A DNA stretch of 64,000 bases from Gordonia lacunae (GTDB lineage Bacteria; Actinomycetota; Actinomycetes; Mycobacteriales; Mycobacteriaceae): contig NZ_NGFO01000002.1 of NCBI RefSeq assembly GCF_002149015.1, positions 124,001 through 188,000 on the forward strand. Direction: 5' to 3'. Under the pieces are notes generated by a model. It was not told the origin of the DNA. It searched no databases and saw only the letters and a list, made by a program, of their open reading frames with translations. A program made the translations under genes and the position numbers. Positions within the stretch are counted from its first letter, which is position 1. Each line of letters starts with the position of its first letter. This document shows, piece after piece, positions 37,753-44,986 of this stretch.

Positions 37753-38949
37753 TCACAACCCTCGCGCATACGGTGCGGCGTAGCCGGTCTTCATCGGCTC
37801 GTCGCCCAACCATGCCGCGAGTTCATCGGCCCGGGCATCGAGTGCCCGACGCGCATCCCGGGACAGCGGCTCCAGCGGGATGATGTCGATGGACGAGTCG
37901 GGGCGGCGATACCAACCGCCGACGATGCGCCCGTCCCACCAGGCGGTCTGACCGCCGTTGCCGACGGAGTCGAAGACCTGCGCGGTGTGGTTGCCGAGAT
38001 AGAAGCCGCGCTCCTTGTAGCCCATGGTGGTCGGGTCCAGTTCGGGCAGGAGCACGGCCTGCGGTTCGACCGGCCCGTCCCCTCCGCCGTCGATACCGGT
38101 GCCGTCGGGTAGATCGTCGGGCAGGACATGACCGACTCCACCGCGTTCCAGGTCGACCCGGACCGTGCCGAGTTCGGCGAGGGCCGCGCGGACCGCGGTC
38201 TTGGTCGAGCCCAGCCACCACACCAGGTCGGTCTCCGTACCGGGTCCGTAGGTTCGCAACCAACGCCGGATCAGCGCGCAGTGGCCGTCGTGGACGCTCA
38301 TCGACGGCAACGTCTCGCCGAGCCAGAGCGGCATCGAGGTCCACGCCGGTCGCGACAGATGCCAGCCCAGCCGATTCGGCCCCCGGACGATCGCCCCCTC
38401 GGCGTCGAGCATGTTCAGCACGCGCGGCCCCATCGGGGCGCGGCCCGCCCACGAGGTACCCGCGCCGTGGGAGATGTAGCCGTCGAGTGCCGGTAGCCGC
38501 TCGCGGAGTTCGGTGGAGGTCAGCGACTCGCCGCCGGCCAGTTCGGCGAGGACTGCCTGCCGGGCGGTCTCGATCCAGCCCTCGGGGTCGTCGAAGTCGG
38601 GACTACGCCGGAGGTCGCGCAGCATGTTGGTGCGTTCGGAGGCAGAGATCCGCGGCCCCAGTGCGCCGATGGACTCGGCCAGGACGTCGCGCGGGAACAC
38701 GAACAGTGTGCGCCGCATCGCGAGGTGCTTGACGAGCGTCCGATCCTCGTAGAGGGCGGTGTCGACGGAGTCGCGGGTGAAACCCGGACCGACGCGGGCC
38801 CACGCGGCCAGATGGACCGTCGACGGAGTGGTGGCGTGCAGACCCACCATGGTGGCGGCCGCCTCCACCGCGTCGGCGGCCCGCGACGAGGCGTCGAGGT
38901 GTGCCCGGCGCATCAGGCGTGCCCGGCGCTGGGCGTCGGTGATCAGCAT
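37753..38949 (-). CDS. HTH_42 winged-helix protein (AlkZ/YcaQ-like)
   Basis: The 398-residue protein belongs to the HTH_42 family: MLITDAQRRARLMRRAHLD start, HLAMRRTLFVFPRDVLAESI, and GYKERGFYLGNHTAQVFDS with the late WWDGRIVGGWYRRPDSSI. Members YcaQ and AlkZ are DNA glycosylases acting on bulky lesions or crosslinks. The catalytic QxQ/QxD segment of those enzymes lies where this protein has VGLHATTPSTVHLAAWAR, so glycosylase activity is doubtful. It ends just 12 bases from the HNH gene end (convergent). The start is the ATG at 38949. Confidence 0.85.
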   Translation of the reverse strand: MLITDAQRRARLMRRAHLDASSRAADAVEAAATMVGLHATTPSTVHLAAWARVGPGFTRDSVDTALYEDRTLVKHLAMRRTLFVFPRDVLAESIGALGPRISASERTNMLRDLRRSPDFDDPEGWIETARQAVLAELAGGESLTSTELRERLPALDGYISHGAGTSWAGRAPMGPRVLNMLDAEGAIVRGPNRLGWHLSRPAWTSMPLWLGETLPSMSVHDGHCALIRRWLRTYGPGTETDLVWWLGSTKTAVRAALAELGTVRVDLERGGVGHVLPDDLPDGTGIDGGGDGPVEPQAVLLPELDPTTMGYKERGFYLGNHTAQVFDSVGNGGQTAWWDGRIVGGWYRRPDSSIDIIPLEPLSRDARRALDARADELAAWLGDEPMKTGYAAPYARGL

Positions 38950-39429
38950 GCAGAGATCGTAGTGAGCCGTGCTGACAAGAGAATGCAACGAGCACGAGGA
39001 GGGGACGCGGGTGCCGGAGACCGCCGACCCCCGTCGACCCGGTGTCCGGCACCCGCGCGGTCGTGTGGGCCGAACGACACACAGCCCCCGACGGGCAGTG
39101 TTCGCGACACTTTCGGTGTGTCCTTCGACCGACGCAACCTGTGCGCTTCCCGACCACCGTCGAGTCGCGCCCCACAAGCAGACCCCACGAACGCGACCCA
39201 CTCCACCCCTGTTCCGGAAACCGGCACATAAACGCAGTTCAAGCGGCTAACGGACTATCCGGACCGGACAGAACCAGGTCCGGATCCGGCGGCCGGACCG
39301 CCGCCGGGAGCGGCGACGCGGGCCCGAGATGTGGCCGTCGCCACATCGGGTCGTCGATGGTGGCGCGGTGGGTTCGGCTACCGCATGATGGTGCGGTCGA
39401 ACTGTCGGGGCGAGCATGGGAACAGCTGA
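38950..39429. other. Long divergent intergenic region before the nSTAND gene
   Basis: These 480 bases separate the divergent HTH_42 and nSTAND genes and carry no ORF I trust. A perfect inverted repeat GATGTGGC-CGTC-GCCACATC at 39328-39347 lies 82 bases before the nSTAND start and could be an operator or hairpin. A CCGGATCCGG palindrome sits at about 39280-39290. No riboswitch or RNA motif was recognised. Confidence 0.45.
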
Positions 39430-42400
39430 GTGGATTTCGGAGAGGCACTCGCGCGACTGTTCGTGCAAGCCGGCCGTCCCACACTGCGGGCCTCCGCGTC
39501 CCGAGCTCGGGTGTCGGCACAACGGATCAGCGACTGGCGAAACGGCCGGCATCTCCCCCGGGACTTCGCGACCGTCGAACCGCTGCTCGTCTGGCTGACC
39601 GCGCGCGCCGTCGCCGCCGGGGCCGAGGATGTCCTGACCATCCCGCAGTGGCGCGAGATGTGGGACCGGCGGACGCCCGAGGAGACCACCGGGGCCCAGC
39701 CGTCCGCGACGCAGCACGCGCGCCCGTTCGCCGGACTGGCCACCCTCACCGCAGCCGACAGTCAGATGTACTTCGGCCGGGACGACGTCGTCGGCACCCT
39801 GGTCGACGCGATCCTGGCGGCGCGCACGGGCCCGCCCCCGCTGGCCCCCGCGTCTCGGCTCGTCGTGGTCACCGGGGTGTCGGGATCCGGTAAATCCTCG
39901 CTGCTGCGGGCCGGCCTGGCCCGGGACGCCCGGTTGCCCTCGCCCCGACTCGGCGAGATCACGCCGGACGGTCTCGTCATCGCGGAGCCGGCGGTTCCGG
40001 AGGCCACCGAGGCAGCCGAAGTCCCCGGGCCCCCGACCGAGGACGCGGTCATCGTCATCGACCAGTTCGAGAACGTCTTCTCCCTCGAGGACTCGCTCCG
40101 CGCCGAGACGCTGCGCCAGGTCGAGGAACTCGCGTCCGACACGGTCGTCGTGGTCGGCGTGCGAGCCGACTTCTTCAGCCAGTGCGTCGAGCACCCGTTC
40201 CTCGCCGACGCCTGGCAGCACCGCTGCGTGATCGTCTCGGAGATGACCCGCACGCAGTTGCGCGAGGTCATCACCGCGCCTGTCCGGCTCGCCGGCGGCC
40301 GGATCGAGACCGGACTCGCCGACGTGATGATCACCGAGCTGTACGAGGCATCGACGGGCGGCGACCGGGCCGGCCGCCTGCCCTTGCTGGCGCACGTCCT
40401 GCAGGCGACCTGGGCACGACGCAGCGGCAACCGGATGACCCTCTCCGGTTACCGGGCCACCGGCGGCATCGCCCGCGCCGTCGCCGACACGGCCGAGGCC
40501 GCCTGGGCGGCGATCGATCCGCGGCACCGGGACCTGGCGCGGGCGGTGCTGCTCGCCCTCGTGCACGTCGGTCCGGCCGGCATCGCGCTGCGCGTGCCGC
40601 TGTCCACGGTGACCATCGCGAACCGGTTCCCGCCCGAGGTCTCCACCGTCATCGACGAGTTCGCCCAGGCCAGGCTGCTCACCGTGTCCACCGACTCGGT
40701 GATGCTCGTGCACGATGTCGTGCTGACCGCGTGGCCACGTCTGGCCGAGTGGATCGCCGACGATACGGACAACCACCTGTGGCGCCAGCAGGTCGACGCC
40801 GACAGCGCGGCCTGGCTGGCCAACGGCCGGGGCCGGTCATTCCTCTACACCGGATCGCGCCTCGACGACGCCAAGCGGCGCCGGCGAGCCCTCCGCAGTG
40901 ACTATCTCCACCTGCTGAGCAGGGAGAACGACGCGTTTCTCGACGCCGCGGTCGCCATGCAGCAGCGGCGACGCCTGACCCGGCTCGGTGCGGTGTCGGT
41001 CATCGTGGTGCTGGCCATCGCGGCGTCGATCACCGCGGCGATCGGGTTCCGCCAGGCGCACGACCTCCGGCAGCAGCGCAACGCCGCCGAACGATCGGCG
41101 CTGCTGTCCCACATCGACAGCATGCAGTACTCCAACCCGTCCCTGGCGGCGCGGCTGTTGCTCATCGCGCATCAGATCTATCCCGACGACCCGACCGTCG
41201 AGAGCCGGTTGCGCGGGGCCGCGACGACGCCCCTCGTGACTCCGCTGACCGGACACACCGGCCCGGTCTACGACCTCTCCTTCGACCGGACGGGCACCCG
41301 GCTCGCGTCGGCGAGCGGCGACCGGACCGTACGCGTCTGGACGCGGTCGGGTTCGTCGGACTATCGGGAGACCGCCGTCCTGCGCGGCTTCGGCAACTAC
41401 GTGACCAGCACCGATTTCCACCCCACCCGACAGTTGCTGGCGAGCAGCAGCGGAGACGGCTCGGTCCGCATGTGGGATCTCACCGACGTGTCGAACCCCC
41501 GGCTGGCGACGACGCTGTCCCCCGGACACGGCACGGTCTACATGGTGCGATTCGCCGCCGACGGCCGCACGCTGGCCGCGTCGTCGGACGACGGCACGAT
41601 CACCGTCTACGCGGTCTCCCCGGCCGGATCGATCCGGGAGACCGCCGTGCTGCGCGGGCACACGGCCGCGGCGCGGACCCTGTCCTTCAGCCCCGACGGA
41701 CGCGTCCTCGCCAGCGGTGGCGACGACCGCACCGTCCGACTGTGGACGACCGGCGACGCACCGCAACCGCTGGGTCCACCGCTCACCGGTTTCCCGAGCA
41801 TCACCCATGCCGTCGCCTTCAGCCCCGACAGTCGCTCGCTGGCGGTCACCGGCGACAGCCCCAACACCCAACTGTGGGATGTCGCCGACCCGCGTGCACC
41901 CCGCCCGCTGAGCACGTCCCTGCCCAACAGCACCGCGGGCTCGTGGTCCATCGGCTTCGACGGTTCGGGTTCGCAGCTGGCCTCCGCCCGGGCGGACGGT
42001 CTCGTGCGGGTGTGGAACACCGCGAACCCCGGTTCGCCGACGCTGCAGTGGGCGCTGCAGACCACCTCCGAGCAGGGCTCGGTCCGGACCTTCGCCGCCC
42101 GGTTCGACCCCAGTGGCGAACAGCTCGTGTCCGGCCGGTCGGACGGGACCATCGACGTCTGGAGCCTGCCCGGCCGGACCGAACCCGACCGCGGCGGAAC
42201 GATCACCGGACTGGACACCGATGCCGCGCACCGAGTTCTGGCGACGGTCGGCTCCGACACGACGCTGAACCTGTGGACGACGTCGGGCGGCCTCACCCTG
42301 CGCTCACGAACGCCCATCCAGCGCCGCGTCAACGACCACCCGCGCGTCAGCCTCAACGGCCCCGGCACCCTGGCTGCCACGGCGAACAACAACGGTGGGC

Positions 42401-43218
42401 TCGTCGAGATCTGGGACATCGCCGACACCGCGGCCCCGCGCCGCGCCGCGGCCCTCGACCTCGCCACCCGCTATTCGTTCCCGGTCGTCTTCGCGCCGGC
42501 GGGGAACCTGCTCGCGACCGGCGACACCGACACCACCGTGGCCCTCTGGGACACCTCGGTGCCCGGCTCCCCGCGCCGGGTGGGTGCACCGCTGCGCGGA
42601 CCGACCGACCTCATCCGCAACGCCGCCTTCAGCCCCGACGGCACGCGGCTCGCGCTGACCTCCGACGACAAACGCGTCTATCTGTACGACCTCACGTCGT
42701 CGAGTCCGGACCCGGTCGACGTCGTCACCGTCGCGGCGCCGGTGGCGCAGGCCGCGTTCGACGACGACGGCGATGTGCTGGTGGTCGCCTCCCGCGACCT
42801 CACCACCTGGCGACTGCCACCGATCGGCACGGACGCCGAACCGGAACTCCTCGACCGGTACGAGGACATGTTCGCGTCGACGGTGTCGGTGGCACCGAAC
42901 CGGCTCGCGGTGGGCACCGCCACGCACGAACTGATCAGCTTCGCGCTCGGCGACGACGGCCGGCTCACCGATCGGCAACCGGTCGGGACACTGCTCGCCA
43001 CCACCGACACCACGACCACCTGGCAACTGCCGGCCGAGCTCCCGTCCGACGACGAGATCATCGCCGGTGGCGACACGACCGGGAACGTCTACCGGCACAC
43101 GCTCGATCTCGCCGTGGCCCGCGACTGGATCTGCGCGAGCACCGCGCCCCTCACCGACGCCCAGCGCGACGCCTATCTCCCGCACGTCGACGTCCGAGCG
43201 AACTGCCGTCGGGACTGA
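39430..43218 (+). CDS. HTH-nSTAND ATPase with membrane helix and WD40 repeats
   Basis: The 1262-residue protein has an N-terminal XRE-like helix-turn-helix (about 5-55, with RASASRARVSAQRISDWRNG) and an nSTAND NTPase with Walker A GVSGSGKSSLLRAG (149-162) and Walker B VIVIDQFENVF (about 207-217). A single membrane helix at about 518-540 follows, and then WD40 blades from about 610 to the end (repeats like RLASASGDRTVRVWTRSG). Such proteins couple a sensing propeller to ATPase switching, and some STANDs are anti-phage. The start is the GTG at 39430. It stands alone on its strand with a long upstream region. Function unknown. Confidence 0.9.
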   Translation: MDFGEALARLFVQAGRPTLRASASRARVSAQRISDWRNGRHLPRDFATVEPLLVWLTARAVAAGAEDVLTIPQWREMWDRRTPEETTGAQPSATQHARPFAGLATLTAADSQMYFGRDDVVGTLVDAILAARTGPPPLAPASRLVVVTGVSGSGKSSLLRAGLARDARLPSPRLGEITPDGLVIAEPAVPEATEAAEVPGPPTEDAVIVIDQFENVFSLEDSLRAETLRQVEELASDTVVVVGVRADFFSQCVEHPFLADAWQHRCVIVSEMTRTQLREVITAPVRLAGGRIETGLADVMITELYEASTGGDRAGRLPLLAHVLQATWARRSGNRMTLSGYRATGGIARAVADTAEAAWAAIDPRHRDLARAVLLALVHVGPAGIALRVPLSTVTIANRFPPEVSTVIDEFAQARLLTVSTDSVMLVHDVVLTAWPRLAEWIADDTDNHLWRQQVDADSAAWLANGRGRSFLYTGSRLDDAKRRRRALRSDYLHLLSRENDAFLDAAVAMQQRRRLTRLGAVSVIVVLAIAASITAAIGFRQAHDLRQQRNAAERSALLSHIDSMQYSNPSLAARLLLIAHQIYPDDPTVESRLRGAATTPLVTPLTGHTGPVYDLSFDRTGTRLASASGDRTVRVWTRSGSSDYRETAVLRGFGNYVTSTDFHPTRQLLASSSGDGSVRMWDLTDVSNPRLATTLSPGHGTVYMVRFAADGRTLAASSDDGTITVYAVSPAGSIRETAVLRGHTAAARTLSFSPDGRVLASGGDDRTVRLWTTGDAPQPLGPPLTGFPSITHAVAFSPDSRSLAVTGDSPNTQLWDVADPRAPRPLSTSLPNSTAGSWSIGFDGSGSQLASARADGLVRVWNTANPGSPTLQWALQTTSEQGSVRTFAARFDPSGEQLVSGRSDGTIDVWSLPGRTEPDRGGTITGLDTDAAHRVLATVGSDTTLNLWTTSGGLTLRSRTPIQRRVNDHPRVSLNGPGTLAATANNNGGLVEIWDIADTAAPRRAAALDLATRYSFPVVFAPAGNLLATGDTDTTVALWDTSVPGSPRRVGAPLRGPTDLIRNAAFSPDGTRLALTSDDKRVYLYDLTSSSPDPVDVVTVAAPVAQAAFDDDGDVLVVASRDLTTWRLPPIGTDAEPELLDRYEDMFASTVSVAPNRLAVGTATHELISFALGDDGRLTDRQPVGTLLATTDTTTTWQLPAELPSDDEIIAGGDTTGNVYRHTLDLAVARDWICASTAPLTDAQRDAYLPHVDVRANCRRD

Positions 43219-43336: not shown

Positions 43337-44986
43337 TCAGCGGAAGCCGAGCACCTCGTCGCCCCACGCCTCCCAGATGTCGCCGTCGAGGTTCTGCACG
43401 ACCCGATCCTCGGCATCGATGCGCAGCACCGGACGATGGCCGGTGTCGTAGGTGGGCCACGGATCGCCGAGAGTCCCGGCGTCCGGCTCCTGCCCGTGCG
43501 CGAAGGCAGTCCAGCGTCGAACCATCCTCTCGGACACCGCTTCTCCCTGTTTGCGGCCGCCGAGCAGGAACGTGATGTCGCGGGGCCCGGCGCCCAGATT
43601 GCCCCACACGTACGGGACTTCGGTCGCGTGGGCGGCGCCGAGTCCGAGGAGCCGGAACATCCGTGTCGTCCAGTCGTAGCGGTACACGTAGACCGGCGCG
43701 GAGCGTGCGTGCGCCTCGGCGAGCCACAACGTGGGCATCCGGAACGCCACGTCGCGGGCCACGCCGAGCCCGGTGACCTTGGGGCGCAGACCCGAATAGG
43801 CCGAGAGCACCTGCGCACGCTCCGGCAGGACGACGTCCGGATACTCCTTCGCCATCCCTGCGAACATCCGCTCGATGTCGGCGGTGGTGATCGGCATGAG
43901 CGGGGACTTCATGTACTTGAACAGGTTCGCCTCGTCGCGGTTGGTCCCGATGATCAGCGGCACCGGATGCGCGCGACCCGCCCGATAGACGTCGAGGGGA
44001 TGCTCGGGCAGCAGATCGCCGTCGATGACCGGGGCGAAGGCGATGGTCCCCGGCGTCTCGCCGGGAATCTTCTCGAACAGCGTGGTGGTGATCGCCGAAC
44101 ACGTCATGCCGTCGAGTTCGTCGAGCCGCGCGACGATCTCGCCCGTGTCGAGCTCACCCGCGTCGATCCCGGCGGCCTCGAGCAACTGCGCGGCGACCCG
44201 CGCCGCCCGGTCCGCCCCGTACATCGACGTCACGGGTGAACTCTGCGCGATCGCCCGGCCGAAGAGCCCGGTCGCGGCCGGCATGGTGAGCAATGCGGTG
44301 ACCAGTCCCGCCCCGGCCGATTCGCCGAACACGGTCACCTTGTCAGGGTCGCCACCGAACGCGGCGATGTGGTCGTGAACCCAGCGCAGCGCCGCCAGCA
44401 CGTCACTGAGTCCGGCGTTGGACTCGAACCGCTCGTCGATCGACGACAGGTCGGCGAACCCGAGCACCCCGAGCCGGTAGTTGAGCGTCACGACGACGAC
44501 GTCACCCGTGGCGGCGAGGTTCGAGCCCTCATAGAACGGTTGGGCCCCGGATCCCAGCACGTAGGCGCCGCCGTGCAGCCACACCATGACCGGGAGTCCG
44601 ACCGCGTCGTCGGCATGCTCCGAGGCGCCCGGCGGGGTCCACACGTTGAGGAACAGACAGTCCTCGTCCATCACCACGTCCGGACCGAGGCGCACCGCGG
44701 GGTTCAGCTGCTGCGGGCACACCGCGCCGAAGGTCGAGGCATCCGCGACGTCCTCCGGGGCATCGCTCTCCCCGAGCGGCACCGCACGACGCCAGCGCAG
44801 CTCACCCACGGGCGGACGGGCGTACCGGATGCCCCGCCACACGTCGGCCCGCTCGCCGACGACGCCACGGTGGGTCCCGACGCGGGTCCGGGCCAGCGGC
44901 CGCGGACCGTCGGTTGCGTCTCCCCTGGGTGACGGCGGGATCGTGGACGTGCCCGGTTCGTCGTGCGTCATCAGTCCATCGTGCAC
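43337..44986 (-). CDS. Type-B carboxylesterase/lipase family protein
   Basis: The 549-residue alpha/beta hydrolase has the type-B signatures EDCLFLNVWTPPGAS and nucleophile elbow VTVFGESAGAGLVTAL, with the oxyanion LHGGAYVLGS and the His in LGAAHATEVPYVWGN. The acid is probably in IGTNRDEANLF. It has no signal peptide, so it is cytoplasmic. It would hydrolyse carboxylic esters. Start ATG 44986 or ATG 44971; neither has a clear SD. It faces the nSTAND gene and diverges from a small membrane protein. Confidence 0.92.
   Translation of the reverse strand: MHDGLMTHDEPGTSTIPPSPRGDATDGPRPLARTRVGTHRGVVGERADVWRGIRYARPPVGELRWRRAVPLGESDAPEDVADASTFGAVCPQQLNPAVRLGPDVVMDEDCLFLNVWTPPGASEHADDAVGLPVMVWLHGGAYVLGSGAQPFYEGSNLAATGDVVVVTLNYRLGVLGFADLSSIDERFESNAGLSDVLAALRWVHDHIAAFGGDPDKVTVFGESAGAGLVTALLTMPAATGLFGRAIAQSSPVTSMYGADRAARVAAQLLEAAGIDAGELDTGEIVARLDELDGMTCSAITTTLFEKIPGETPGTIAFAPVIDGDLLPEHPLDVYRAGRAHPVPLIIGTNRDEANLFKYMKSPLMPITTADIERMFAGMAKEYPDVVLPERAQVLSAYSGLRPKVTGLGVARDVAFRMPTLWLAEAHARSAPVYVYRYDWTTRMFRLLGLGAAHATEVPYVWGNLGAGPRDITFLLGGRKQGEAVSERMVRRWTAFAHGQEPDAGTLGDPWPTYDTGHRPVLRIDAEDRVVQNLDGDIWEAWGDEVLGFR

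What the first reader, a model, noticed from the sequence alone, without database searches (positions are those of the whole stretch)
39430..43218. HTH-nSTAND-TM-WD40 protein in an isolated locus
One protein joins a DNA-binding-like HTH, an nSTAND ATPase switch, a transmembrane helix and an ordered set of WD40 blades. A DNA-binding domain in a membrane-anchored STAND is unusual and could connect an envelope signal to transcription or anti-phage defence. It has a 480-base upstream region with a 20-base inverted repeat.
Basis: partly seen in the sequence, partly recalled or inferred. Interest (0 to 1): 0.55.

Follow-up and report, generated by a model that had tools for sequence, protein, structure and literature searches.

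The report
Membrane-anchored STAND gene regulator with operator
A large bacterial protein that appears to sit in the cell membrane, with a propeller-shaped sensor probably outside and a DNA-binding switch inside, travels with its own short DNA landing site, which in several related species also lies in front of outer-membrane porin genes, so it looks like an envelope-sensing gene regulator.

Summary
The described protein is real: window 39430-43218, 1262 aa, with an XRE-type HTH, an nSTAND1 NTPase, one transmembrane helix and about 14 WD40 blades. The genus is Gordonia. The architecture is not rare: the same nSTAND1-TM-WD40 chassis recurs across the class with TIR, caspase, trypsin, SARP or HTH domains at its N terminus. 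The gene is not universal: it is cleanly missing at its own site in a close relative and fragmented in three others.

What is new is a DNA element that follows this HTH. An 11-bp palindrome, TCCGG[A/T]CCGGA (window 39258-39268), lies upstream of 35 of 41 Gordonia HTH-STAND genes, including 15 of 21 at unrelated loci. It, or the variant TCCGC[A/T]GCGGA, lies upstream of 33 of 43 in other genera. It is upstream of 0 of 20 nSTAND1 genes with other N termini. In Gordonia it also lies upstream of 21 of 30 MspA-type porin genes, 13 of them far from any STAND gene.

I conclude that this is a membrane-bound STAND transcription regulator that autoregulates and, in some Gordonia lineages, controls porins. 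In the window's own genome only the self-site is supported. I found no defence link. All evidence is comparative; binding, topology and signal are untested.

The parts
39430..43218 (+). HTH-nSTAND1-TM-WD40 gene, 1262 aa
   Evidence: single copy in its genome
39430..39669 (+). N-terminal XRE-type HTH (residues 1-80); recognition helix about residues 30-37 (AQRISDWR)
39724..40833 (+). nSTAND1 NTPase (residues 99-468), with Walker A GVSGSGKSS near residues 149-157
   Evidence: invariant residues in 37 proteins
40993..41049 (+). transmembrane segment (residues 522-540); positive charge on the N-terminal side
   Evidence: long helix in the model
41224..43119 (+). WD40 region, about 14 blades, read as two propellers (residues 599-1230)
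43132..43206 (+). C-terminal cysteine pair (Cys1235, Cys1259), the only two cysteines after the TM; proposed disulfide
   Evidence: exactly two post-TM Cys in 34 of 37 proteins
39258..39268 (.). proposed operator TCCGGACCGGA, about 170 bp upstream of the start codon
38997..39170 (.). conserved noncoding block with the 18-bp inverted repeat (39006-39057); role unknown
37753..38949 (-). divergent neighbour, AlkZ-like (PF06224); context only
43337..44986 (-). convergent neighbour, carboxylesterase (PF00135); context only

Best explanation
It is a transmembrane transcription regulator built on a STAND switch. The N-terminal XRE-type HTH, in the cytoplasm, binds a palindromic operator (TCCGG[A/T]CCGGA) in the gene's own promoter (inferred from comparative genomics). 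The nSTAND1 module holds it off or on according to nucleotide state (inferred from the STAND family). The single TM helix anchors it, and the WD40 propellers, with a C-terminal disulfide, lie outside the membrane as the sensor (inferred). In several Gordonia lineages the same operator stands in front of MspA-family porin genes, so the output there is proposed to be porin supply plus self-control. In the window's own genome only the self-site was found.
For: Operator upstream of 35 of 41 genus genes: 20 of 20 at the shared site, 15 of 21 at other sites. In other genera 33 of 43 carry TCCGGWCCGGA (10) or TCCGCWGCGGA (24; one has both), against 0 of 20 class-level nSTAND1 genes with other N termini and 0 hits for 8 control palindromes. 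The site follows the HTH and not the rest: an HTH fused to NB-ARC-TPR keeps it at -107. The variant operator goes with a changed residue just after the recognition helix: Arg41 in all 24 of 24. It stands before 21 of 30 MspA genes, 13 of 21 of the non-adjacent ones and 8 of 9 of those next to a STAND gene (PF09203). G058 has an MspA gene but no HTH-STAND match, and no operator. Background is 18 sites in 5.75 Mb of the own genome. Topology: positive-inside charge and the paired terminal cysteines. The HTH is among the most conserved parts (dN/dS 0.05 in the window's own group).
Against: No binding, expression or topology experiment. The own genome has 9 MspA genes; none of the 8 inspected has the operator, so the porin target does not hold for this very strain. 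6 of 41 and 10 of 43 genes lack the exact palindrome, and so do all 13 inspected (of 17) short HTH-TM relatives of genus g30. In three genomes with the variant operator no MspA link was seen. The Arg41 link may be one evolutionary event. The HTH sequence match is weak. The best VIA-align hit is RodZ, whose HTH binds protein. The cysteine argument lacks a non-membrane WD40 control.
Confidence: 0.66

Rival explanations
1. An unrelated DNA-binding protein owns the palindrome and controls HTH-STAND and MspA genes together; the HTH of this protein binds a protein partner, as in RodZ.
For: RodZ (2wus) and YmfM (3fym) HTHs are among the best structural matches. Membrane-tethered HTHs that bind protein exist (RodZ-MreB, recalled and in the title of 2wus).
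Against: The site follows this HTH subfamily even when fused to another NTPase, and is absent upstream of 20 of 20 nSTAND1 genes with other N termini. The operator variant tracks an HTH residue. Foldseek's top hits are DNA-binding XRE regulators.
Confidence: 0.14
2. An anti-phage STAND sensor of the Avs/NLR kind; the HTH is an adaptor or effector, and activation harms the cell.
For: Sister proteins on the same chassis carry TIR, caspase and trypsin-like domains at the same place. Literature places nSTAND1 in conflict systems (PMC8195603, passages).
Against: No PADLOC-specific hit, no defence neighbours at 20 paralog loci, conserved chromosomal site with vertical descent in 20 genomes, no sign of strong diversification of the propeller (dN/dS 0.11-0.33).
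Confidence: 0.1
3. Same regulator, but the propellers are cytoplasmic and the TM is only a membrane clamp.
For: Most known WD40 domains are intracellular (general knowledge).
Against: N-side charge +1 to +6 against -1 to +2 after the TM, and two paired terminal cysteines in 35 of 37 proteins.
Confidence: 0.25

Closest known systems
MalT and other STAND transcription factors
   Same: DNA-binding effector, NTPase switch, repeat sensor; PMC4381067 (abstract and passages) lists nucleic-acid-binding effectors and WD40 sensors for STANDs
   Different: MalT is not membrane-anchored (recalled); here the HTH is N-terminal XRE-like and a TM splits switch from sensor
Transmembrane transcription regulators (TTRs; ToxR, CadC, BcrR)
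   Same: One polypeptide with DNA-binding domain and TM; single-pass is the commonest form (PMC10269533, abstract and results part 1)
   Different: No STAND NTPase, NACHT or WD40 TTR is mentioned in that paper's main text (term search); supplements not read
EACC1 membrane-associated conflict system with caspase/nSTAND1 proteins
   Same: Related chassis in actinobacteria, membrane-associated (PMC7159879 section 33; nSTAND1 note in PMC8195603)
   Different: No caspase, no EACC1-like 5' gene found beside the window gene
RodZ
   Same: Cytoplasmic XRE-like HTH, TM, outside domain (recalled); top VIA-align hit Z 8.4, rmsd 2.4, 73 aligned
   Different: No NTPase or propeller; its HTH binds MreB
Streptomyces HTH-nSTAND1-WD40 proteins
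   Same: Similar order of domains; plasmid-borne homologs annotated 'helix-turn-helix domain-containing protein'
   Different: HTH of another subfamily; the operator was not found upstream of the class-level HTH proteins L134, L135, L136, L140, L148

Membership tests
nSTAND1 STAND NTPase (PF20703) | Profile match above cut-off with intact P-loop | tested here: met
   296 bits against cut-off 27.1; P-loop G-SG-GKSS invariant in 37 proteins
XRE/Cro-CI HTH | Helical fold with the HTH pair | tested here: met
   AlphaFold model and Foldseek top hits DdrO, ClgR, TM to target 0.74; Foldseek E-values are 0.06 or worse
XRE/Cro-CI HTH | Sequence profile above curated cut-off | tested here: not met
   HTH_31 16.4 bits against 27; 24 of 40 relatives match at E up to 1, best 0.00096
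Transmembrane transcription regulator | DNA-binding-type domain plus at least one TM in one protein | tested here: met
   (TM by hydropathy and model only)
Transmembrane transcription regulator | Sequence-specific DNA binding and control of a target | tested here: inconclusive
   Only comparative evidence: palindrome upstream of HTH-STAND and MspA genes
Anti-phage STAND systems in PADLOC | Match to a defence model | tested here: not met
   Only generic P-loop and repeat hits
Anti-phage STAND systems in PADLOC | Residence in defence islands | tested here: not met
   150 neighbours at 20 paralog loci: only weak or generic families
EACC1 two-gene conflict system | 5' EACC1 gene and N-terminal caspase or cyclase | tested here: not met
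   Upstream gene is a divergent AlkZ-like gene; N terminus is an HTH
RodZ | Binds MreB | not testable with these tools
   Fold similarity only

The most novel reading that the evidence does not exclude
A previously undescribed class of transmembrane STAND transcription factors in mycolic-acid bacteria: an outside WD40 double propeller senses the envelope, an inside NTPase assembles, and the XRE HTH works on a dedicated TCCGSWSCGGA operator, controlling its own gene and, in Gordonia, MspA-family outer-membrane porins (and in one closed genome perhaps a cell-wall amidase).
Probability: 0.42. Interest if true: 0.78.

Novelty: new variant of a known kind. Interest (0 to 1): 0.62.

Why it matters
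Proteins of this architecture are widespread in actinobacteria with no assigned role that I found. A dedicated operator gives a concrete handle: a 100-residue domain and an 11-bp site that can be tested in a simple binding assay. If true, it gives MspA-type porins, which let small molecules through the outer envelope of mycolic-acid bacteria, a candidate regulator, and shows STAND switches reading signals across a membrane to control genes rather than to kill.

Tried and rejected
Rejected: defence island. The mad2, mad3 and mad8 hits there (5, 3 and 3 of 150 members) are generic families by my reading. Rejected: housekeeping fixture; one search finds matches in 50 of 59 genomes, but G043's is WD40 only, and G021 (L071) has the two flanking genes 66 bp apart with neither the STAND gene nor the conserved block. 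G008, G056 and G028 hold fragmented copies; draft errors cannot be excluded for G056 and G028. Rejected: known RNA in the conserved block (Rfam); 2 of 49 predicted pairs show a two-sided change, so an RNA is neither shown nor excluded. Rejected: phage origin; three unannotated gut phage contigs match only the NTPase part. Not found: a wider operator regulon in the own genome. Of 18 sites, all were inspected; the 17 others mostly lie in long frames, but my frame test is crude (it also finds an antisense frame over the true site). Not found: MspA link in three genomes with the variant operator. Not found in print: searches (the literal 11-mer); subscription journals are mostly not held.

Corrections: one search used the WD40 half in the wrong frame, so those identities were dropped and redone. 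My notes say 33 of 36 for the cysteines and 14 non-adjacent MspA genes; recounting the outputs gives 34 of 37 and 13 of 21. The binomial figure printed for MspA used the wrong numbers and is not used.

Full report
What is there. The gene at 39430-43218 codes for 1262 residues. Pfam finds nSTAND1 (99-468) and WD40 repeats. A profile search of the HTH alone is weak, but an AlphaFold model from 40 relatives is confident and resembles XRE regulators. A second model from 37 relatives covers 90-1262 and shows the NTPase, a long helix across the TM, and about 14 blades; its best matches are a highly repetitive propeller protein (2ymu), then Apaf-1.

Topology. The only strong hydrophobic segment is at 522-540. 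Across 37 proteins (four disrupted or partial ones, L047, L049, L061, L062, were left out) the side before it is more positive than the side after it in nearly all; L056 is the exception (+1 before, +2 after). After it there are exactly two cysteines in 34 of 37, 23-25 residues apart at the very end; L067 has a third, L060 (cut short) and L070 have none. In 20 class-level nSTAND1 proteins 18 have such a pair, 21-26 apart. This suggests an outside propeller closed by a disulfide. I had no non-membrane control.

Is it fixed? Of 59 genomes of the genus, 50 have some match; one of these, G043, is WD40 only. Twenty genomes, the window's included, share the same chromosomal site near AlkZ-like and, in most, carboxylesterase genes. 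G021 has the site without the gene, 66 bp between the neighbours, and G013, G049 and G041 also lack it there. Other species carry paralogs elsewhere. The HTH evolves under strong constraint (dN/dS 0.05 in the window's group, 0.12-0.14 in the other three groups); the propellers are at 0.11-0.33, with no sign of positive selection by this coarse measure.

Family setting. Across the class 13 of 40 genomes have nSTAND1 at E 1e-40. Of 20 such proteins fetched, 19 N termini were scanned: HTH_31 in L134, L135, L136, L140, L148; TIR in L149-L152; caspase in L138, L141, L143; trypsin-like in L146; SARP/BTAD in L142 and L147; cyclase-like, weakly, in L137; none in L133, L139, L144. So the N-terminal place is a swappable output slot, filled either by transcription-factor domains or by conflict effectors. 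In the family, the HTH profile hits 60 of 151 genomes. In genus g30 the HTH sits in short proteins: HTH, the C-terminal third of nSTAND1 without the P-loop, and a TM, or only HTH and TM. HTH and TM persist where the NTPase and propeller are gone.

The operator. Aligning upstream regions of orthologs showed a conserved palindrome. I then asked where it occurs. In Gordonia it is within 450 bp upstream of 35 of 41 HTH-STAND genes: 20 of 20 syntenic and 15 of 21 others. In other genera I examined 43 of the 50 HTH matches: 10 have TCCGGWCCGGA, 24 TCCGCWGCGGA, one of them both, 10 neither. None of 20 class-level nSTAND1 genes and none of the 13 inspected (of 17) g30 matches has it, and eight other palindromes of the same composition never occur in the two positive sets. 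The TCCGC variant was recognised after the fact. All 24 HTHs with it have Arg at position 41; those with TCCGG only have His, Asn or Thr at the same place in the rows I read. These 24 are from three genera and may reflect one change. G048 has a third form, TCTGGACCAGA, before its MspA gene, and its HTH has Gly in place of the otherwise near-invariant Gln31.

Targets. An extended form, TTGTCCGGWCCGGACAA, occurs five times in 59 genomes: four near HTH-STAND genes and one before an MspA gene. A search for that MspA protein gave 32 matches in 22 of 59 genomes; 30 could be inspected. The operator is within 500 bp upstream of 21 of 30: 8 of 9 adjacent to a STAND gene and 13 of 21 elsewhere. Among the 22 with at least 60% identity it is 18 of 22; the misses are G058 (no HTH-STAND match), G048 twice (variant sites) and G024. 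In the closed genome G044 there are nine sites: three before MspA genes, one before the STAND gene, one 98 bp before a predicted secreted amidase (my reading of the sequence, not profile-tested), three inside long frames, one unclear. Against this, the window's genome has nine MspA genes and none of the eight inspected has the site.

Mechanism. Shown: domain order, conservation, and association of palindrome, HTH and MspA. Inferred: the HTH binds the palindrome; the NTPase gates it, as in MalT (PMC4381067, abstract and passages); the propeller senses from outside. Sites at -41 to -60 in several paralogs lie where a promoter would be, which fits repression of its own gene, but activation is not excluded.

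Novelty. STAND transcription factors and transmembrane transcription regulators are both known. Their combination with an outside WD40 sensor and a dedicated operator was not found in the papers searched; PMC10269533 mentions no STAND NTPase or WD40 in its main text. I rate it a new variant of a known kind.

Noticed in passing
window 38997-39170: Conserved noncoding block, 80-99% identical in 11 Gordonia genomes that all have the STAND gene (whole, or split in G028 and G056), absent in G021 which lacks both; holds the 18-bp inverted repeat. A shorter related stretch is upstream of the gene in the sister clade. Role unknown.
   Followed up: partly
L117-L128, L132: Short HTH-TM proteins of genus g30: same HTH, degenerate nSTAND1 end without P-loop, C-terminal TM; some only HTH plus TM. 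No operator found.
   Followed up: partly
L131:7030-9699 (-): Same HTH fused to NB-ARC and TPR repeats, with the operator at -107.
   Followed up: yes
L142, L147: SARP/BTAD plus AAA plus nSTAND1 plus TM plus WD40-like C terminus: apparently membrane-anchored AfsR-like regulators.
   Followed up: no
L133-L152: Terminal cysteine pair shared by nSTAND1-TM-WD40 proteins across the class whatever the N-terminal domain (18 of 20).
   Followed up: partly
L280:1501: In G044 an operator lies 98 bp upstream of a predicted secreted N-acetylmuramoyl-L-alanine amidase.
   Followed up: no
L110, L232 (upstream regions): Two tandem operators 20-21 bp apart, upstream of an HTH-STAND gene (L110) and of an MspA gene (L232).
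   Followed up: no
L054:13718 and L058:13545: Extended palindrome 1.8-2.0 kb upstream of STAND genes that lack it nearby, just beyond a glutamate dehydrogenase gene.
   Followed up: partly
phage records MT835531, MT836527, MT836049: Unannotated gut phage contigs with an nSTAND1-like stretch (30-34% identity).
   Followed up: no
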